DNA of 64,000 nucleotides from Actinoplanes octamycinicus. GTDB taxonomy: Bacteria > Actinomycetota > Actinomycetes > Mycobacteriales > Micromonosporaceae. Below the pieces are notes generated by a model. That model worked only from the letters and a program-made list of their open reading frames with translations, was not told where the DNA came from and did not search any database. Each line of letters opens with the position of its first letter. Positions within the stretch are counted from its first letter, which is position 1. Below are positions 37,000 to 64,000 of this stretch, one piece after another. The position numbers were made by a program, and so were the translations under genes. Where the stretch lies: contig NZ_JACHNB010000001.1 in NCBI RefSeq assembly GCF_014205225.1, forward strand, positions 10,025,501-10,089,500. The letters are read 5' to 3'.

Positions 37000-38355
37000 T
37001 CAGCCGATTGTTCGGGTTCGGTAAGGCAGCTCCACCGTGAACCGCGCCCCGCCCTCCGCGGCGTGCCCGGCCTCGATCCGCCCGCCCAGCCGCCCGACCA
37101 GCCGGGCCGCCAGCGCCAGCCCGAGCCCGCTGCCCACCTTGCGGATCCCCCGGTACCGCCGGTTCAGCGCGCCCCGGTCGAAGGCCACCGCCAGGTCGTC
37201 GTCGGTGAAGCCGGGCCCGCCGTCGCGCACCTCGACCACCCCGCCCCGGTCGCCGGCGCGCACCGCCAGCACCAGCGGCGCACCGGACGGGACCACCCGC
37301 AGCGCGTTCTCGCACAGCCCGTCGAGCACCTGCCGGATCCGCCCGGGGTCGGTCGCCACCGTGACCGGGCGGTCCGGCAACTCGACCGCGAGCGCGGGGC
37401 CGTCCGTCCCGCAGCGCGCCGACCAGGCGACGCCCGCCTCCCGGACCAGCTCCACCAGGTCCACCTCGACCACGTCGAGCGGCAGGTCGGCGGCCTCCAG
37501 CCGGGAGAGCACCAGCAGGTCGGAGATCAGCCGGTCGAGCCGGTCGGCCTCGGCGAGCATGGTCGCGCCGGCCTGCGCCACGCCGTCCGCGTCGACCACG
37601 CCGTCGGCGAGCGCTTCGGCATAGCCGCGAATCGTGGACAGCGGCGTACGCAACTCGTGGGAGACCGACAACAGGAAGTCGCGCTCCCGGCCCTCACTCG
37701 TCTGCAACGCCGCGGCCAGCTGATTCACCGCCTCGGCGAGGCGGTGCGCCTCGGCCGGGCCGTGCCGGGCGATCCGCACCGACCGGTCGCCGGCGGCGAG
37801 CCGCCCGGCCGCCGCCGCGGCCAGCTCGATCGGCCGGGTCAGGAAGCGGGCCAGCAGCGCGCCGGCCAGGACCCCGCCGAGCAGGCCGGCCAGCAGCGCC
37901 CACCAGACGCCGCCGAGCACCTGCCACGCGACGCCGGAGTCGGCCGGCCGGGTGAGCACCACGCCGGCGTCCACCCCGGGCAGCGGGCTGCCGGCCACGA
38001 ACGACTCCCGGCCGCCGACCCGGGCCCGCACGTTCACCAGGGCGCCGCCGGTCACCCGGGCGATCACCCGGGGCGGCAGGCCGGGGCGGTCGGCCACGCC
38101 GCGCCGGATCACGTAGATCTCGATGTCGTCCTGGCGCAGCCGCTCGGCGATGTTCTCCCGGACCACCGGGCGCCGGTCGGTGAGCAGCTGCACCGCGATC
38201 GCCGACTTCTCCACCAGCTCGGCGCGGACCTGGGTGTTCACCGACCGCACCGCGACCGGGACGGCGACCAGCGCGGTGATGATCACGGCGACCACCGCGG
38301 TGGCGACGGTGACCAGGACGGCGCGGCCGGTCAGCGTACCGAAGAAGTCACGCAT
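37000..38355 (-). CDS. Membrane sensor histidine kinase
   Basis: 451 aa. Two transmembrane helices (about 13-35 and 145-170) flank an extracytoplasmic sensor domain. A HAMP linker follows (FLTRPIELAAAAAGRLAAGD). The phospho-acceptor His233 lies in SVSHELRTPL, and the ATPase domain has a weakly conserved N box (LCENALRVV), G1 (VRDGGPGF) and G2 (GSGLGLALA). It overlaps the response regulator by 8 bp, so they form one signalling unit. The signal is unknown. Confidence 0.92.
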   Translation of the reverse strand: MRDFFGTLTGRAVLVTVATAVVAVIITALVAVPVAVRSVNTQVRAELVEKSAIAVQLLTDRRPVVRENIAERLRQDDIEIYVIRRGVADRPGLPPRVIARVTGGALVNVRARVGGRESFVAGSPLPGVDAGVVLTRPADSGVAWQVLGGVWWALLAGLLGGVLAGALLARFLTRPIELAAAAAGRLAAGDRSVRIARHGPAEAHRLAEAVNQLAAALQTSEGRERDFLLSVSHELRTPLSTIRGYAEALADGVVDADGVAQAGATMLAEADRLDRLISDLLVLSRLEAADLPLDVVEVDLVELVREAGVAWSARCGTDGPALAVELPDRPVTVATDPGRIRQVLDGLCENALRVVPSGAPLVLAVRAGDRGGVVEVRDGGPGFTDDDLAVAFDRGALNRRYRGIRKVGSGLGLALAARLVGRLGGRIEAGHAAEGGARFTVELPYRTRTIG

Positions 38356-39040
38356 CGGCGGTGTACCCGACGCCGCGCACGGTGCGGATCAGGCTCGCCG
38401 CCCCGCCCAGCTTGGCCCGCACCTGCGCCACGTGCACGTCGACGGTGCGGGTGCCGGCGTGCGACGCGTAGCCCCAGACCGCGGCCAGCAGCTCCTCCCG
38501 GGTGAACACCCGGCCGGGCCGGCCGAGCAGGTGGGCGAGCAGATCGAATTCGGTCGCGGTCAGGGTGAGCGGCGCGTCGTCCAGCCGCGCGGTCCGGCGG
38601 CCCTGGTCGAGCGTCAGGGGGCCGAGTGTGCGCACCCGGTCGGTCTCCGGCGGACCAGCCGCCCGGCGCAGCAGCGCCTTGACCCGGGTGACCAGCTCGC
38701 GCGGGCTGAACGGTTTCGTCACGTAGTCGTCGCCGCCCAGCTCGAGGCCGAGGATCCGGTCCACCTCGTCGTCCCGCGCGGTCAGGAAGATGACCGGGGT
38801 CCAGTCGCCGTCGGCGCGCATCCGCCGGCAGATCTCGGTGCCGTCCAGGCCGGGCAGCGCGATGTCCAGGATGCAGGCGACCGGGCGCAGCCGGCGGGCC
38901 GCGGCCAGGCCGGCCGGGCCGTCGTGCTCGACCTGCACGCCGAAGCCCTCCCGGCTCAGGTAGAGCCGGACCAGGTCGGCGATCGGGCGCTCGTCCTCGA
39001 CCACGAGGACCAGCCCTTTGGCGGCGTCAGTCACGGACAC
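38348..39040 (-). CDS. OmpR-family response regulator
   Basis: 230 aa. The receiver domain has the acidic pocket VVEDE (14-18), phospho-acceptor Asp59 in CILDIALPG, Thr in LTARDD and Lys in VTKPF. The winged helix-turn-helix output has LTATEFDLLAHLLGRPGRV and RTVRGVGYTAD. It is first in the operon with the kinase and lipoprotein. A 403-bp upstream region separates it from the repeat-protein gene. Confidence 0.93.
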   Translation of the reverse strand: MSVTDAAKGLVLVVEDERPIADLVRLYLSREGFGVQVEHDGPAGLAAARRLRPVACILDIALPGLDGTEICRRMRADGDWTPVIFLTARDDEVDRILGLELGGDDYVTKPFSPRELVTRVKALLRRAAGPPETDRVRTLGPLTLDQGRRTARLDDAPLTLTATEFDLLAHLLGRPGRVFTREELLAAVWGYASHAGTRTVDVHVAQVRAKLGGAASLIRTVRGVGYTADA

Positions 39041-39443: not shown

Positions 39444-40961
39444 ATGTACGGACAGCAGATGTATCCTCAGGGCGCACAGTTCGCACCGCAGGGAGCGTTC
39501 GGCCAGCAGCTGGGCGGCATTCTCGGCGGGATCGGTGGCGGCTACCTCGGACAGCAGGGCCTCGGCCAGCAACTCGGTTCGGCGCTCGGCAACCTCTTAC
39601 CGTTCCAGGCGGGCCCGCAGCAGCAGCAGTTCGCCCCGCAGGGCGCGATCGGCCAGCAGCTCGGCGGCGTCCTCGGCGGCATCGGCGGCGGCTACCTCGG
39701 ACAGCAGGGCCTCGGCCAGCAGCTCGGCTCCTACCTCGGCAACCTCCTGCCCTTCCAGGCCGGACCCCAGCAACAGCAGCAGTTCGCCCCGCAGGGCGCG
39801 ATCGGCCAGCAACTCGGCGGCGTCCTCGGCGGCATCGGCGGCGGCTACCTCGGACAGCAGGGCCTCGGCCAGCAGCTCGGCTCCTACCTCGGCAACCTCC
39901 TGCCCTTCCAGGCCGGGCCCCAGCAACAGCAACAGCAGCAGTTCGCCCCGCAGGGGGCCTTCGGCTCGTTCCTCGGCAGCACCCTCGGCGGCATCGGCGG
40001 CGACTACCTCGGCCAGAAAGGCCTCGGCCAGCAGATCGGCGCCCGCCTCGGCGACCTCCTGCCCTTCCAGGCCGGCCCGCAGCAGCAGTTCGCCCCGCAG
40101 GGCGCGATCGGCCAGCAACTCGGCGGCGTCCTCGGCGGCATCGGCGGCGGCTACCTCGGACAGCAGGGCCTCGGCCAGCAGCTCGGCTCCTACCTCGGCA
40201 ACCTCCTGCCCTTCCAGGCCGGACCCCAGCAACAGCAACAGCAGCAGTTCGCCCCGCAGGGCGCCCTCGGCTCGTTCCTCGGCAGCACCCTCGGCGGGAT
40301 CGGCGGCGGCTACCTCGGACAGCAGGGCCTCGGCCAGCAGATCGGCGCCCGCCTCGGCGACCTCCTGCCCTTCCAGGCCGGCCCGCAGCAGTTCGCCCCG
40401 CAAGGCGCGATCGGCCAGCAACTCGGCAGCGTCCTCGGCGGCATCGGCGGCGGCTACCTCGGACAGCAGGGCCTCGGCCAGCAACTCGGCTCCTACCTGG
40501 GCGACCTCCTGCCGTTCCAGGCCGGACCCCAGCAACAGCAGCAGATGACCCCGCAGAGCATTTTCGGTCCGCGGCTCAGCGACATGATCAGCGACTACCC
40601 CGGCTTCGGCTCGCCGAGGATCGGCAGCCCGGGCATCGGCAACCCGATCACCAGCATGCTGCCGTTCCAGGCCGGGCCGCAGCAGCAACAGCAGTTCGCC
40701 CCGCAGGGCATCTTCGGCGGCGCACTGGGCACCATCGCCGGCAACGCGCTCGGCGGCTACTTCGGCAACAGCGGCCTGGGCAGCACGATCGGCGGCATCG
40801 CCGGTGGCCTGCTGCCGTTCCAGGCCGGCCCGCAGCAGTCCCCGCCGTTCGTCCCGCCCTACTACCCGGGCGTCTACGGCGGCCAGGGCGCTTACGGATA
40901 CGGCCAGGCACCCACCGGCCAGCAACAGCAGATGCCCCAGATGGCGGGCGCGGTCAACTGA
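39444..40961 (+). CDS. Gln/Gly-rich repeat protein with glycine-zipper-like units
   Basis: 505 aa and almost wholly repetitive. Seven near-identical units of about 48-53 residues each run FAPQGAIGQQLGGVLGGIGG, GYLGQQGLGQQLGSYLGNLL, PFQAGP and a poly-Gln run of 2-7 residues. Two degenerate units follow, then a Pro/Tyr/Gly/Gln tail. GxxxG-type spacing (GGVLGGIGGG) resembles glycine zippers that pack into membranes or amyloids. There is no signal peptide, charge is very low, and the units resemble each other at DNA level. I do not recognise the family. It precedes a propeptide-like protein and a subtilisin on the same strand. ATG 39444 was preferred over a TTG at 39423. Confidence 0.75.
   Translation: MYGQQMYPQGAQFAPQGAFGQQLGGILGGIGGGYLGQQGLGQQLGSALGNLLPFQAGPQQQQFAPQGAIGQQLGGVLGGIGGGYLGQQGLGQQLGSYLGNLLPFQAGPQQQQQFAPQGAIGQQLGGVLGGIGGGYLGQQGLGQQLGSYLGNLLPFQAGPQQQQQQQFAPQGAFGSFLGSTLGGIGGDYLGQKGLGQQIGARLGDLLPFQAGPQQQFAPQGAIGQQLGGVLGGIGGGYLGQQGLGQQLGSYLGNLLPFQAGPQQQQQQQFAPQGALGSFLGSTLGGIGGGYLGQQGLGQQIGARLGDLLPFQAGPQQFAPQGAIGQQLGSVLGGIGGGYLGQQGLGQQLGSYLGDLLPFQAGPQQQQQMTPQSIFGPRLSDMISDYPGFGSPRIGSPGIGNPITSMLPFQAGPQQQQQFAPQGIFGGALGTIAGNALGGYFGNSGLGSTIGGIAGGLLPFQAGPQQSPPFVPPYYPGVYGGQGAYGYGQAPTGQQQQMPQMAGAVN
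39480..40850 (+). repeat. In-frame repeats of about 150 bp in the Gln/Gly protein
   Basis: The coding array has seven well-conserved units and two decayed ones. Length varies by multiples of three through expansion or loss of CAG/CAA glutamine codons at the unit joints. Two unit subtypes alternate (GQQLGG...GSYLG and GSFLGS...GARLG), suggesting duplication of unit pairs. Confidence 0.85.
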
Positions 40962-41042
40962 CGAGTCCGCGCGGAAACGCCGGATAAGGTCGTGGCGCCG
41001 GGGACTCCCCCGGCACCACGGCCCGGCCCCGGGAGAGACTCC

Positions 41043-41252
41043 ATGGACCTCCAGGAATACATCGCCACCGGCACCGAATTCAGTGAACTACTCGCTGCCG
41101 TCGATACGCTTCCCGACGTCACCGTCACGAAGAAAGCATCCCGGTACGTCGTATTCCAGGCGTACGAAAATGATGTCGCATCATTGCGGGAACAACTCGG
41201 CGACAGATACACGATCGCGCCCAACGCGAATTTGAGACCACTTGACGAATAG
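41043..41252 (+). CDS. Small protein resembling an I9-type subtilisin propeptide
   Basis: 69 aa starting MDLQEYIATGTEFSELLAAV with GGGAGA upstream. The second half (SRYVVFQAYENDV, then LREQLGDRYTIAPNANLRPL) has the beta-alpha-beta pattern and final P-N-x-x-L strand of inhibitor I9 propeptides. The same pattern recurs near the N-terminus of the downstream protease (APQLVVGHNSALTYG). It lacks a signal peptide. I infer a stand-alone inhibitor or chaperone of the neighbouring protease; an unrelated small protein is the alternative. Confidence 0.6.
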   Translation: MDLQEYIATGTEFSELLAAVDTLPDVTVTKKASRYVVFQAYENDVASLREQLGDRYTIAPNANLRPLDE

Positions 41253-41312
41253 CGCTGGTGGCCCTCTCCCGAGGCGCCACCAGCGACGCACGCCTCATGC
41301 TGGGAGGAACGG

Positions 41313-43286
41313 ATGCCCGACTCCGAAGGCCGCCGCGGATCGACAGCCCGCAGCCACTCGACCGCCGCGTCCACCACCGCGTCCACCGCAATACCGGAAT
41401 CTCACGAAATTCCCGTCGGCGTCCAACCGACCGCCCAATACCTGATCGCGCCCCGGTCCCGGGCCAACGCCCACCAGCTGGGGGTGCAGCCGCTGTCGGC
41501 CGGCATGCTGAACGCCGCGGTGCAGGGCCTCGACGTGGTCCGCCGGATCCAGCGCCCGCACGCCACCCTCGCCACCCTCGGCGTGGGGCAGGGCGACGCC
41601 ACCGACATCCTGGTGGCCAACATGGAGCCGGAGCACGCGCAGCTGATCGCGGCCACCGCACCGCAGCTCGTGGTCGGGCACAACAGCGCGCTGACCTACG
41701 GCGGCGGCCCCGCCCTGATGCAGGACGCCTCGGTGTTCGGCATGTTCCCGGCGGCCGCCGTGAAACCCAAGGAGATCCGCTTCAAGGTGCTCGGCGAGAA
41801 CGACCGGCCGCTCGACGGCGCCGTCGTCACCCTGACCGGCGACACCGTGCCCAGCCAGGGCACCACGAACTCCAAGGGCGAGGTCAGCCTGGACCTGTAC
41901 ACGCTGCACGACCGGCCGGCCCGGTCGCTGTTCGTGATGCGCCCGGGCGGTTACTGGGACCTCTACCTGACCGAGCCGGTCGTCTCCGACGCCGCGGTCA
42001 ACGTGGTGCGGCTGCGCGGCTACGCCGAGACGATCAGCGGGTTCCCGCGCGGCTTCCAGCACGGCTGGGGGCAGCGGCTGATGGGCCTCGACCGGCTCGG
42101 GCCGAACCTGCGCGGCGAAGGCGTCAAGGTGGCCATCATCGACTCCGGCGCGGACAACACCCACCCGCTGCTCAGCCACCTGAAGATCGGTCGCGACTTC
42201 ACCGACGGCAACACCACGGCCTGGAGCAACGACCTGGTCGGGCACGGCTCGCACTGCGCCGGGGTGATCGGCGCCCGGTCCGAGGACCAGCTGCGCGGCT
42301 TCGTCCCGGAGGCCGAGATCCACGTGCTGAAGGTGTTCCCGGGCGGCCGGTACGACAGCCTGATCGACGCGCTGGACTACTGCATCGACCACCACATCGA
42401 CGTGGTCAACATGAGCCTCGGCGGCGACACCGAGATCAACGCGGTGGTCGAGGAGACGCTGACCGCCGCGGTCAACGCCGGGGTGGCCTGCATCGTCGCC
42501 GCCGGCAACTCCGGTGACGCGGTCAAATACCCGGCCCGCTCGCCGTACTCGTTCGCCGTCTCCGCGGTCGGCAGCATCGGCGAGGTGCAACCGAACAGCT
42601 GGGACCGGTCGAACCTGCGCCCGCAGTTCCTGGCCGCGGACGGGATCTTCTCGCCGGCGTTCACCTGCTTCGGCCCGGAGGTCGCGGTCTGCGCCCCCGG
42701 CGTGGCGATCATCTCCACCGTCCCGGGCGGCAACTTCGAGTCCCAGTCCGGCACGTCGATGGCAGCGCCGCACGTCACCGGCCTGGCCGCGCTGCTGCTC
42801 GCGCACCACCCGGTCTTCCGCCAGACCTTCGCGGCCCGCGGCCCGGCCCGCGTCGCCGGCCTGTTCAGCATGATCCGCTCGCTGTGCGCGCCGTACGGAT
42901 TCGGCCCCACCCGGGTCGGCGCCGGCATGCCCACCCTGGCGCCGGTGGCGAACATGCTGATCCCCGCCGGCCAGCAGGACCAGCCGGGCTCGTCCGGCGC
43001 CGCGGCCACACCGGGCACGGCGGGCACTTCCGGCGTCGCCGGCGCACCCGGCATCGTCGGCACCCCCGGCCTGCCCGGCTTCGCTCCCGGCCTGACCCCG
43101 GTCCCGGCCTCCGCCGTGGGCGGCATCATGGCCCCGCAGGCGGCCGGCCCGATGGCCGCGGGCTTCATGCCGTTCGCGGCCGTCCCCGGCCTGGTCCCGG
43201 TCCCGGTCGCCCCCGGCGCCTGGCCGTATCCGCACCAGCAGCCCCCGGTCAACTGGATCCTGGCCCAGGCCGGAATCCACTACTGA
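41313..43286 (+). CDS. Subtilisin-like (S8) serine protease without signal peptide
   Basis: 657 aa with GGGAGG 5 nt before the ATG. The triad is complete: Asp277 (VAIIDSGAD), His311 (GHGSHCAG), Ser482 (SGTSMAAPH), plus oxyanion Asn399 (AAGNSGD). An N-terminal I9-like prodomain (about 35-140) and a small Ig-like domain (about 150-235, GENDRPLDGAVVTLTGD) precede the protease. A Gly/Pro/Ala/Met-rich tail (about 555-657) follows. Because there is no signal peptide, it is predicted to act inside the cell, which is unusual for this size and design. It ends a cassette with the repeat protein and the propeptide-like protein. Confidence 0.88.
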   Translation: MPDSEGRRGSTARSHSTAASTTASTAIPESHEIPVGVQPTAQYLIAPRSRANAHQLGVQPLSAGMLNAAVQGLDVVRRIQRPHATLATLGVGQGDATDILVANMEPEHAQLIAATAPQLVVGHNSALTYGGGPALMQDASVFGMFPAAAVKPKEIRFKVLGENDRPLDGAVVTLTGDTVPSQGTTNSKGEVSLDLYTLHDRPARSLFVMRPGGYWDLYLTEPVVSDAAVNVVRLRGYAETISGFPRGFQHGWGQRLMGLDRLGPNLRGEGVKVAIIDSGADNTHPLLSHLKIGRDFTDGNTTAWSNDLVGHGSHCAGVIGARSEDQLRGFVPEAEIHVLKVFPGGRYDSLIDALDYCIDHHIDVVNMSLGGDTEINAVVEETLTAAVNAGVACIVAAGNSGDAVKYPARSPYSFAVSAVGSIGEVQPNSWDRSNLRPQFLAADGIFSPAFTCFGPEVAVCAPGVAIISTVPGGNFESQSGTSMAAPHVTGLAALLLAHHPVFRQTFAARGPARVAGLFSMIRSLCAPYGFGPTRVGAGMPTLAPVANMLIPAGQQDQPGSSGAAATPGTAGTSGVAGAPGIVGTPGLPGFAPGLTPVPASAVGGIMAPQAAGPMAAGFMPFAAVPGLVPVPVAPGAWPYPHQQPPVNWILAQAGIHY

Positions 43287-57718: not shown

Positions 57719-57780
57719 GGCGGGGGCGGGATCAGCGGGAGCGGTTTCCGCCGGATGACGGGCGCGGGCTGCCCGCTGGG

Positions 57781-58180
57781 CAGTGCCCGGGGCCATGCGG
57801 CGACGTGCCGGGCGGGAGCTGCTCGCTGGGCAGCGCCCGAGACCATGCGGCGACGTGCCGGGCGGGAGCTGCTCGCTGGGCAGCGCCCGAGACCATGCGG
57901 CGACGTGCCGGGCGGGAGCTGCTCGCTGGGCAGCGCCCGAGACCATGCGGCGACGTGCCGGGCGGGAGCTGCTCGCTGGGCAGCGCCCGAGACCATGCGG
58001 CGACGTGCCGGGCGGGAGCTGCTCGCTGGGCAGCGCCCGAGACCATGCGGCGACGTGCCGGGCGGGAGCTGCTCGCTGGGCAGCGCCCGAGACCATGCGG
58101 CGACGTGCCGGGCGGGAACTGCTCGCCGGGCAGTGCCCGAGGCCATGTGGCGGCTTGCCGGGCGGGTTGCCTGGACGGCG
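57781..58180. repeat. 50-bp tandem repeat array, eight copies
   Basis: Units start at 57781, 57831, 57881, 57931, 57981, 58031, 58081 and 58131. The middle ones are identical (cagcgcccgagaccatgcgg, then cgacgtgccgggcgggagct and gctcgctggg); the outer ones have diverged. They are joined head to tail with no spacers, so this is not CRISPR. The array fills the 530-bp gap between the VWA and TM2 genes. A 50-bp period is not a multiple of three, so it is not coding. Confidence 0.92.
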
Positions 58181-63220: not shown

Positions 63221-64000
63221 TCAGGCGGCGACGGCCGCGCTGGTCACCCCGAGGATCCCGGTGCTGTCCGGCACCACGACCCGGTACTTGCGGCCGCTCA
63301 CCGCGCCGCTGACCGTCACCTTCGCGGCGGCCGGGTACGTGATCGCCTGCACCCACTGGTTGTTCACCAGCTGCTCGACCACCACGGTCTGCCCGTTGAC
63401 CCCGCCGAGCTGGACGCTGAGCGTGCCCTTAGCGGTACGGGTGACCGTCGCCGTGGCCCGCACCGTGTAGCTCGACACCGGCGAGACCGCGACCAGGTTG
63501 GTCGCCGAGGCGGCCACCTTGACCTGGACCTGGAAGCCCTTGGTCGCGGACCGGGTGACCGGCACCGTGCCACTGGTCGTGGTCACCACGTCGCCGCACT
63601 TCTCGGTGCCGCCGGTCTCGGTCACGCAGACCGACACCGTCTTGCGCGCCCACGCCTTGCCCGCCGCGGTCACCGTGAACGTGGTGGCGGTCGAGGTGCC
63701 GTACTTGACCTCGCGCGTCGTCACGTTCGACTTGATGGCCAGGGTGGCCGGCGCCGCGGTGGTGCTGGGCGTCGGGGAGGCCGACTTCGACGGAGACGGG
63801 GCGGACGAGGACGGGGCCGGAGCCGGCGACGACGAGGTGGACGACGGGGACGGCGCCACCGACAGCGACGGCGCGGCGGTCGGAGCGGCGGTCGGAGCGG
63901 CGGTGGGCGCCGAGGTCGGGGCGGTCACGGCCGCCAAGGCCGCCACGGCGTTCACCCGGCCGTACCCGAAATCGTTGTCCTTGCCGGCGGTCCCGAGGTC
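63221..64000 (-). CDS. Secreted subtilisin-like protease, 3' part only
   Basis: The frame runs off the right edge. The first visible residues, DLGTAGKDNDFGYGRVNAVA, are the end of an S8 catalytic domain (the GxGRVNA pattern). A Thr/Ser/Pro/Ala-rich linker of about 75 residues follows, then a beta-sandwich domain with TREVKYGTSTATTFTVTAAG and a terminal VVVPDSTGILGVTSAAVAA. The linker and outer domain suggest secretion with a cell-wall or substrate-binding module. The signal peptide and triad are outside the window. Confidence 0.72.
   Translation of the reverse strand, partial: DLGTAGKDNDFGYGRVNAVAALAAVTAPTSAPTAAPTAAPTAAPSLSVAPSPSSTSSSPAPAPSSSAPSPSKSASPTPSTTAAPATLAIKSNVTTREVKYGTSTATTFTVTAAGKAWARKTVSVCVTETGGTEKCGDVVTTTSGTVPVTRSATKGFQVQVKVAASATNLVAVSPVSSYTVRATATVTRTAKGTLSVQLGGVNGQTVVVEQLVNNQWVQAITYPAAAKVTVSGAVSGRKYRVVVPDSTGILGVTSAAVAA

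What the first reader, a model, noticed from the sequence alone, without database searches (positions are those of the whole stretch)
39444..43286. Candidate protease, inhibitor and repeat-substrate cassette
Three same-strand genes lie together: a 505-aa Gln/Gly protein with glycine-zipper-like repeats, a 69-aa protein resembling an I9 subtilisin propeptide, and a 657-aa subtilisin with its own I9-like domain but no signal peptide. Seen directly: repeat structure, intact S8 triad, missing signal peptides. Inferred: the small protein restrains the protease, and cleavage within or between units of the repeat protein could release membrane-active or aggregating glycine-zipper pieces, a layout similar in logic to other protease-activated bacterial defence or death systems. 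The LPFQAGP segment recurs at every unit end and could be a recognition site.
Basis: partly seen in the sequence, partly recalled or inferred. Interest (0 to 1): 0.82.

Follow-up and report, generated by a model that had tools for sequence, protein, structure and literature searches.

The report
Subtilisin, inhibitor and zipper-repeat cassette
A rare set of neighbouring bacterial genes, found in several phyla, encodes a protein-cutting enzyme that seems to stay inside the cell, a small protein built like that enzyme's own safety catch, and a long repeat protein whose units end in a sequence that looks made to fit the enzyme's active site; what the set does for the cell is not known.

Summary
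Three same-strand genes (39444-43286) encode a glycine-zipper repeat protein, a 69-aa protein and an S8 zymogen. Members of this protease clade have an LPF-repeat or Gln-rich ORF upstream in 34 of 40 loci and a standalone 69-aa-type protein in 20 of 40; among 70 other S8 loci the counts are 4 and 0. All three parts occur together in 12 of 40, in Actinomycetota, Bacillota and Pseudomonadota. The small protein is homologous to the protease's own N-terminal domain (hhalign E 5.8e-8; four control regions null), which superposes with the propeptide of pro-subtilisins. Small-protein tails end in [LIVMF]xx[FLYMW] in 15 of 21 (18% expected), resembling the repeat motif LLPF|xAGP. Some proteases carry zipper units fused at their C-terminus. 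So the small protein is probably an I9-type trans inhibitor and LLPF a cognate active-site ligand. Whether LLPF is cut, or blocks the enzyme like LIPY/F in intracellular subtilisins, is open. Membrane-active, defence or death roles are unsupported: units are mostly neutral and moderately hydrophobic, the neighbours scanned share nothing, and some lineages keep a triad-less protease.

The parts
39444..40961 (+). Gln/Gly repeat protein, 505 aa: ~50-aa units 'FAPQG - glycine zipper - LLPF - QAGPQ(Q)n', nine PFQAGP copies
   Evidence: homologues
39477..40556 (+). tandem-repeat core of the gene (periods 147-159 and 306 bp reported)
41043..41252 (+). 69-aa standalone I9-type (propeptide-like) protein; predicted b-a-b-b-a-b fold
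41232..41249 (+). its C-terminal tail LRPL-DE, product-like (P4 Leu, P2 Pro, P1 Leu; inferred register)
41313..43286 (+). 657-aa S8 zymogen without visible signal peptide
41427..41681 (+). protease N-terminal I9-like prodomain (residues 39-123)
41697..41702 (+). Tyr129-Gly130, conserved end of the prodomain at the start of a low-confidence linker; candidate self-processing site (inferred)
41760..42032 (+). Ig-like / CarboxypepD_reg-like inserted domain (residues 150-240), Pfam matches below cut-off
42060..42956 (+). S8 catalytic domain (residues 250-548), triad D277 H311 S482
42978..43283 (+). low-confidence Gly/Pro-rich tail with 'MAPQ...MPFAAVPG', which looks like a decayed zipper unit (inferred); full units sit here in P0012, P0145 and P0185

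Best explanation
It is a self-contained cytosolic proteolysis module. The protease is a zymogen: its N-terminal I9-type domain docks on the catalytic domain and probably self-cleaves after Tyr129. The 69-aa protein is a detached copy of that domain whose gene ends about where self-cleavage would occur, so its tail (LRPL-DE here; LEPF-DE, LSPF, VQPL-G, IHPL-S in relatives) can sit in S4-S1 as a trans inhibitor and perhaps folding helper. The repeat protein is the dedicated active-site ligand: each zipper unit ends in LLPF|xAGP, a very good subtilisin site on paper (P4 Leu, P2 Pro, P1 Phe). When the inhibitor is outnumbered or lost, the protease cuts the array into ~47-aa, mostly neutral glycine-zipper units, or unlocks their assembly; the array could itself compete with the inhibitor. 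Shown here: co-occurrence, homology of the small protein to the prodomain, predicted propeptide-like placement of that domain, motif conservation, tail preference, fusions. Inferred: inhibition, self-cleavage, cleavage at LLPF, trigger, fate of the units, biological role.
Confidence: 0.55

Rival explanations
1. The repeat protein is a multivalent pseudo-substrate. Each LLPF/LIPF binds and blocks the active site as the LIPY/F motif of intracellular subtilisins does, so the zipper assembly stores or concentrates inactive protease instead of being cut. (This and the next reading overlap with each other and partly with the best explanation; the odds need not sum to 1.)
For: The ISP motif [LVI]-[IFLV]-P-[YFH] is inhibitory in a cytoplasmic subtilisin (PMC6220982, passages). 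The same pattern occurs 204 times in 74 of 86 repeat proteins vs 9.6 in shuffles, and 155 of 373 LPFxAxP-type motifs fit it. Intracellular proteases 7xr8 and 7y6m are among the PDB relatives. Triad loss with partner retention suggests binding matters.
Against: In the ISP register P1 would be Leu/Ile and the conserved xAGP is unexplained. Small-protein tails mostly have polar residues at that position (such as Arg, Glu, Asn, Gln, His, Thr, Ser) and 0 of 21 fit the ISP pattern in their last 8 residues, favouring Phe/Leu/Tyr as P1.
Confidence: 0.25
2. The repeat protein is a structural, gel- or condensate-forming protein and the protease (or pseudoprotease) is a client incorporated into it, as GerG affects Csp levels in C. 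difficile spores.
For: Gln-rich partner in active and triad-less lineages alike. Zipper units on protease C-termini could co-assemble. Copy number is 9, 8 and 7 among close relatives. GerG forms gels through Asn-rich repeats and controls Csp protease/pseudoprotease levels in spores (PMC5241399, passages).
Against: GerG's repeats are dispensable for its role; nothing here shows assembly; LLPF conservation is unexplained.
Confidence: 0.25
3. One reading: protease-released units are membrane-active killers in defence, suicide or as bacteriocins.
For: Patchy distribution (16 of 67 genus genomes at E <= 1e-55, 1 of 396 phylum genomes at E <= 1e-70, the window's own); zipper units; zymogen plus inhibitor fits a dangerous product.
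Against: Units are mostly neutral (144 of 309 exactly 0) and 12 of 309 reach KD 1.6 over 19 residues. No exporter, sensor or defence gene among the few neighbours scanned. No PADLOC match for the repeat or small protein; the S8 matches only generic subtilase and weak IetS models. One true viral and one plasmid hit.
Confidence: 0.12
4. The neighbours are unrelated and their adjacency is chance or a low-complexity artefact.
For: The repeat protein is low-complexity and GC-rich; other frames are open too.
Against: Controls 0 of 70 for LPF repeats and 0 of 70 for the small protein; purifying selection; gene fusions.
Confidence: 0.02

Closest known systems
Standalone I9 inhibitors (Pleurotus POIA1, yeast proteinase B inhibitor, Arabidopsis subtilisin propeptide-like inhibitor 1, Toxoplasma MIC5, Plasmodium SUB1-ProM; named in PMC6993865, abstract and passages seen)
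   Same: Small propeptide-like fold; tail reaching the active site; SUB1-ProM is encoded beside subtilase genes.
   Different: Those named there are eukaryotic. Here the small protein is a bacterial gene neighbour, measurably homologous to the same protease's prodomain, with a repeat protein as third part. Inhibition is not shown.
Bacillus-type intracellular subtilisins (ISP) with LIPY/F pro-peptide (PMC6220982, abstract and passages); IPI inhibitor (PMC3901451, search listing only)
   Same: S8 protease without signal peptide; LIPY/F resembles the repeat motif; a separate inhibitor protein is reported.
   Different: ISPs have a 16-20-residue pro-peptide, not an I9 domain; IPI has an Ig-like fold; no repeat protein is mentioned in what was seen.
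C. difficile Csp proteases/pseudoproteases with GerG (PMC5241399, passages seen)
   Same: S8 protease and pseudoprotease relatives together with a repeat-rich, gel-forming protein.
   Different: Asn-rich repeats of another sequence, spore-specific; no inhibitor gene of this kind in the passages seen.
T7SS mycosin; PatA/PatG cyanobactin protease; IetS anti-phage S8 (NCBIfam, PADLOC)
   Same: S8 fold.
   Different: Far below the curated cut-offs; partner genes not seen among the few neighbours scanned.
Bacterial gasdermins (recalled)
   Same: Protease-released effector logic.
   Different: No gasdermin match in the Pfam scan of the three proteins; release and pore formation unproven here.

Membership tests
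S8 subtilase | Peptidase_S8 domain with D-H-S triad and oxyanion Asn | tested here: met
   135 bits vs cut-off 21.8; D277, H311, S482, N399
I9 propeptide / inhibitor | match to a curated I9 sequence model | tested here: inconclusive
   No Inhibitor_I9 hit for the three window proteins or 21 small proteins; PMC6993865 says known standalone I9 proteins lack significant sequence similarity to propeptides
I9 propeptide / inhibitor | b-a-b-b-a-b fold | tested here: met
   Predicted only: small protein pLDDT 80, prodomain same order of elements; the fold is common
I9 propeptide / inhibitor | prodomain placed on the catalytic domain as in pro-subtilisin | tested here: met
   Predicted only, for the protease's own N-domain: 332 residues aligned with 3whi_B and 2zwo_C; the small protein's own docking was not modelled
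I9 propeptide / inhibitor | inhibits a subtilase through its C-terminal tail | not testable with these tools
   Tail preference only: 15 of 21
Intracellular subtilisin (ISP) | short LIPY/F N-terminal pro-peptide | tested here: not met
   0 of 120 listed homologues have the pattern in the first 60 residues; a folded N-domain is there instead
T7SS mycosin | equivalog score >= 278.75 | tested here: not met
   107.3 bits
PatA/PatG cyanobactin protease | score >= 421.05 | tested here: not met
   34.2 bits
IetAS anti-phage system | IetS-specific model match | tested here: not met
   14.3 bits vs cut-off 900; best PADLOC IetS model 25.2 bits
IetAS anti-phage system | partner ATPase IetA | not tested
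   no dedicated search; not among the few neighbours scanned
Glycine-zipper (PF13436) | Pfam gathering score | tested here: not met
   23.5 vs 27 bits; GxxxG enrichment is real
Protease-activated pore former (gasdermin-like logic) | released fragment permeabilises membranes | not testable with these tools
   only charge and hydrophobicity computed

The most novel reading that the evidence does not exclude
A cross-phylum class of cytoplasmic proteolytic switch in which a bacterial subtilisin, a detached copy of its own propeptide, and an array of 'zipper-LLPF' units form one circuit. The inhibitor tail and the array compete for the same active site, and escape from inhibition turns a silent polyprotein into many near-identical ~47-aa zipper peptides (a signal, an assembly or a lethal agent). 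In a sister lineage the enzyme became a triad-less scaffold on a Gln-rich partner.
Probability: 0.3. Interest if true: 0.92.

Novelty: categorically new. Interest (0 to 1): 0.76.

Why it matters
Each fold is known, but no described system that I know of or found joins them. The repeat and small proteins have no match above cut-off in Pfam or NCBIfam and none in PADLOC at E <= 0.1 (PHROGs not searched), and nine literature searches (open-access PMC only) showed no description in their listings. If the LLPF/inhibitor-tail reading is right, it gives a bacterial case where substrate, inhibitor and self-cleavage site evolve on one active site, testable with three purified proteins, and possibly a source of short self-assembling peptides made by an intracellular subtilisin.
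Full report
What is there. The three ORFs are at the stated coordinates. The first is a tandem array of ~50-residue units 'FAPQG - glycine zipper - LLPF - QAGPQQ', with nine PFQAGP copies. Its Pfam glycine-zipper match is under the cut-off. The 69-aa ORF has no Pfam match. The 657-aa ORF is an S8 protease with intact triad. The window lies in a 10.28-Mb single-contig genome. The closest relatives (G571 and G563; 89 and 93% protease identity) have contigs of the same lengths as those listed for proteins named A. oblitus and A. ianthinogenes, so the host is inferred to be Actinoplanes.

The protease family. A database search gave 1955 homologues at E <= 1e-30 among the 7993 candidates scored (a capped list; the best 120 were listed). 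Named examples come from Geodermatophilus, Priestia, Bacillus, Paenibacillus, Gammaproteobacteria and Polyangia. The 20 aligned with the window protein are 46-89% identical to it, with the N-terminal domain conserved. In genomes the family is rare and patchy: 5 of 150 in the family at E <= 1e-60, 16 of 67 in the genus at 1e-55, 1 of 396 in the phylum at 1e-70, the window's own genome being counted each time. The capped scan of named genomes kept 80 loci; I took 22 (L019-L040) as true members and the other 58 as generic S8. A tree of 38 family rows with three generic S8 controls keeps the family apart and groups the window with Geodermatophilus and then two Bacillota rows and a viral contig (support 92/87), far from most Actinoplanes copies. 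This suggests horizontal spread.

Co-occurrence. I scored 40 family loci and 70 generic S8 loci with the same script. An upstream ORF with two or more LPFxAxP motifs occurs in 15 of 40 vs 0 of 70; an LPF or Gln-rich ORF in 34 of 40 vs 4 of 70; a standalone small protein in 20 of 40 vs 0 of 70. Ten of those 20 were seeds of the small-protein model; of the ten others, L122 and L123 are close to the window's and L026 is marginal (E 0.0071). All three parts occur in 12 of 40 (window, L015, L019-L022, L026, L029-L031, L122, L123), in Actinomycetota, Bacillota and Pseudomonadota; 3 more (L023, L025, L027; Burkholderiales) have LPF repeats and no standalone small protein. Six have neither repeat type by the script (L024, L028, L035, L099, L124, L130); of these L024 shows repeats by eye, and L028, L099 and L124 sit at contig ends. 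In the two close relatives the cassette is syntenic, with 9, 8 and 7 PFQAGP units (window, L122, L123) and dN/dS 0.14-0.29 for every gene.

Tails and motif. Small proteins end close to that position: 15 of 21 have a hydrophobic P4 and a Phe/Leu/Tyr/Met/Trp P1 within three residues of the C-terminus, against 18% for truncations at internal positions of the same proteins (11 of 17 without the four rows P0122, P0124-P0126, and 9 of 15 if L029 and L099, whose hits lie beyond the aligned core, are also left out). Rows are related, so no probability is claimed. Pro is at P2 in eight. The first version of this test (16 of 21) used a cut-short L032, which runs on 15 residues past its HPF. The repeat motif across 86 homologues (374 sites; two of the 86 are S8 fusions) is P4 hydrophobic (360), P3 Leu (328), P2 Pro, P1 Phe (321), P1' mostly Gln/Ser/Gly/Glu/Ala, P2' Ala/Val, P3' Gly/Asp (the pattern itself fixes P2 and P4' and limits P1, P2' and P3). 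That P1 Phe/P2 Pro suits subtilisins (AAPF-pNA) is recalled, not from a call. SUB1-ProM, a standalone propeptide-like inhibitor encoded beside subtilase genes, is modelled with its tail in the cleft (PMC6993865, abstract and passages).

Fusion evidence. P0012 (Geodermatophilus) carries one full zipper unit ending LLPFSAGP at its C-terminus. P0145 carries three and P0185 one. 14 of 120 listed homologues have a PFxAxP-type motif in the last 150 residues, the A. oblitus protein included (LPFAAVP).

Against the reading. The same motif fits the inhibitory LIPY/F pattern of intracellular subtilisins (PMC6220982, passages): 204 matches in 74 of 86 repeat proteins vs 9.6 in shuffles. So LLPF may block rather than be cut. 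Several active proteases have Gln-rich partners without LPF (L016, L032, L033, L036-L039). L017 and L018 have Gly, Arg and Gly/Pro at the triad positions. L131 shows the same kind of change, and L132/L133 at the Asp and His sites; the Ser site was not picked up there. All five have a Gln-rich upstream ORF and form one clade, with the plasmid copy L109 apart. In one search, 25 of 29 loci have D-H-S; the others are L017, L018, L040 (apparently frameshifted MAG) and L109 (Thr for Ser).

Function. Units (309 from 82 of 86 proteins) have median length 47, net charge 0 in 144, and only 12 reach KD 1.6 over 19 residues. This does not look like cationic antimicrobial peptides or clear transmembrane helices. 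Neighbours scanned (IclR, 5'-3' exonuclease, aldehyde dehydrogenase, polysaccharide export, cysteine dioxygenase, flavodoxin, PALP, HMGL; in the window a two-component pair, an exonuclease and DUF5995) share nothing. I therefore keep the proteolytic switch as best explanation, LIPY/F-like blocking and structural assembly as close and overlapping rivals, and the death/defence story as possible but unsupported.

Literature. Nine searches of open-access PMC listed no description of the cassette; three papers were opened (PMC5241399 passages; PMC6993865 abstract and passages; PMC6220982 abstract and passages). Other papers were seen as listings only. Most subscription papers and bioRxiv preprints were not searchable.

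Noticed in passing
   Followed up: partly
L009/L015, L010/L016, L032-L035, L037-L039, L126, L128, L129: An extra ~84-120-aa helical-looking protein (IQRCYRWLEA... / LQRLYGWLQASLPQAPQ...LYRAGRYDACL and more distant likes) between the Gln-rich protein and the protease in actinobacterial loci; no Pfam match above cut-off in the three scanned.
   Followed up: partly
L024:4115-5197: Three consecutive small ORFs (99, 99, 138 aa) upstream of a Thermoactinomycetaceae cassette, not matched by the I9-like model; possible divergent or unrelated inhibitors.
   Followed up: no
L109 (NZ_CP020041.1, Streptomyces sp. 3211 linear plasmid p3211-2): Plasmid-borne family member with Thr for the catalytic Ser and Asp for the oxyanion Asn, within 5 kb of an IS5-family transposase gene.
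   Followed up: partly
L045 (Rhodopseudomonas sp. AAP120): A more distant S8 (query residues 181-544 matched) with a Gln-rich upstream ORF; perhaps an unrecognised family member counted among the controls.
   Followed up: no
window 63773-64000 and beyond (G000:C1:10089273-10090220, minus): A second S8 match (912-aa open frame) begins at the window's right edge and another (604-aa frame) lies at C1:10105173; both are generic S8 by score.
   Followed up: no
window 57759-58166: 50-bp tandem repeat, 8.2 copies, 96% matches.
   Followed up: no
window 37000-39040, minus strand: Histidine kinase and response regulator divergent from the cassette; a possible regulator, untested.
   Followed up: no
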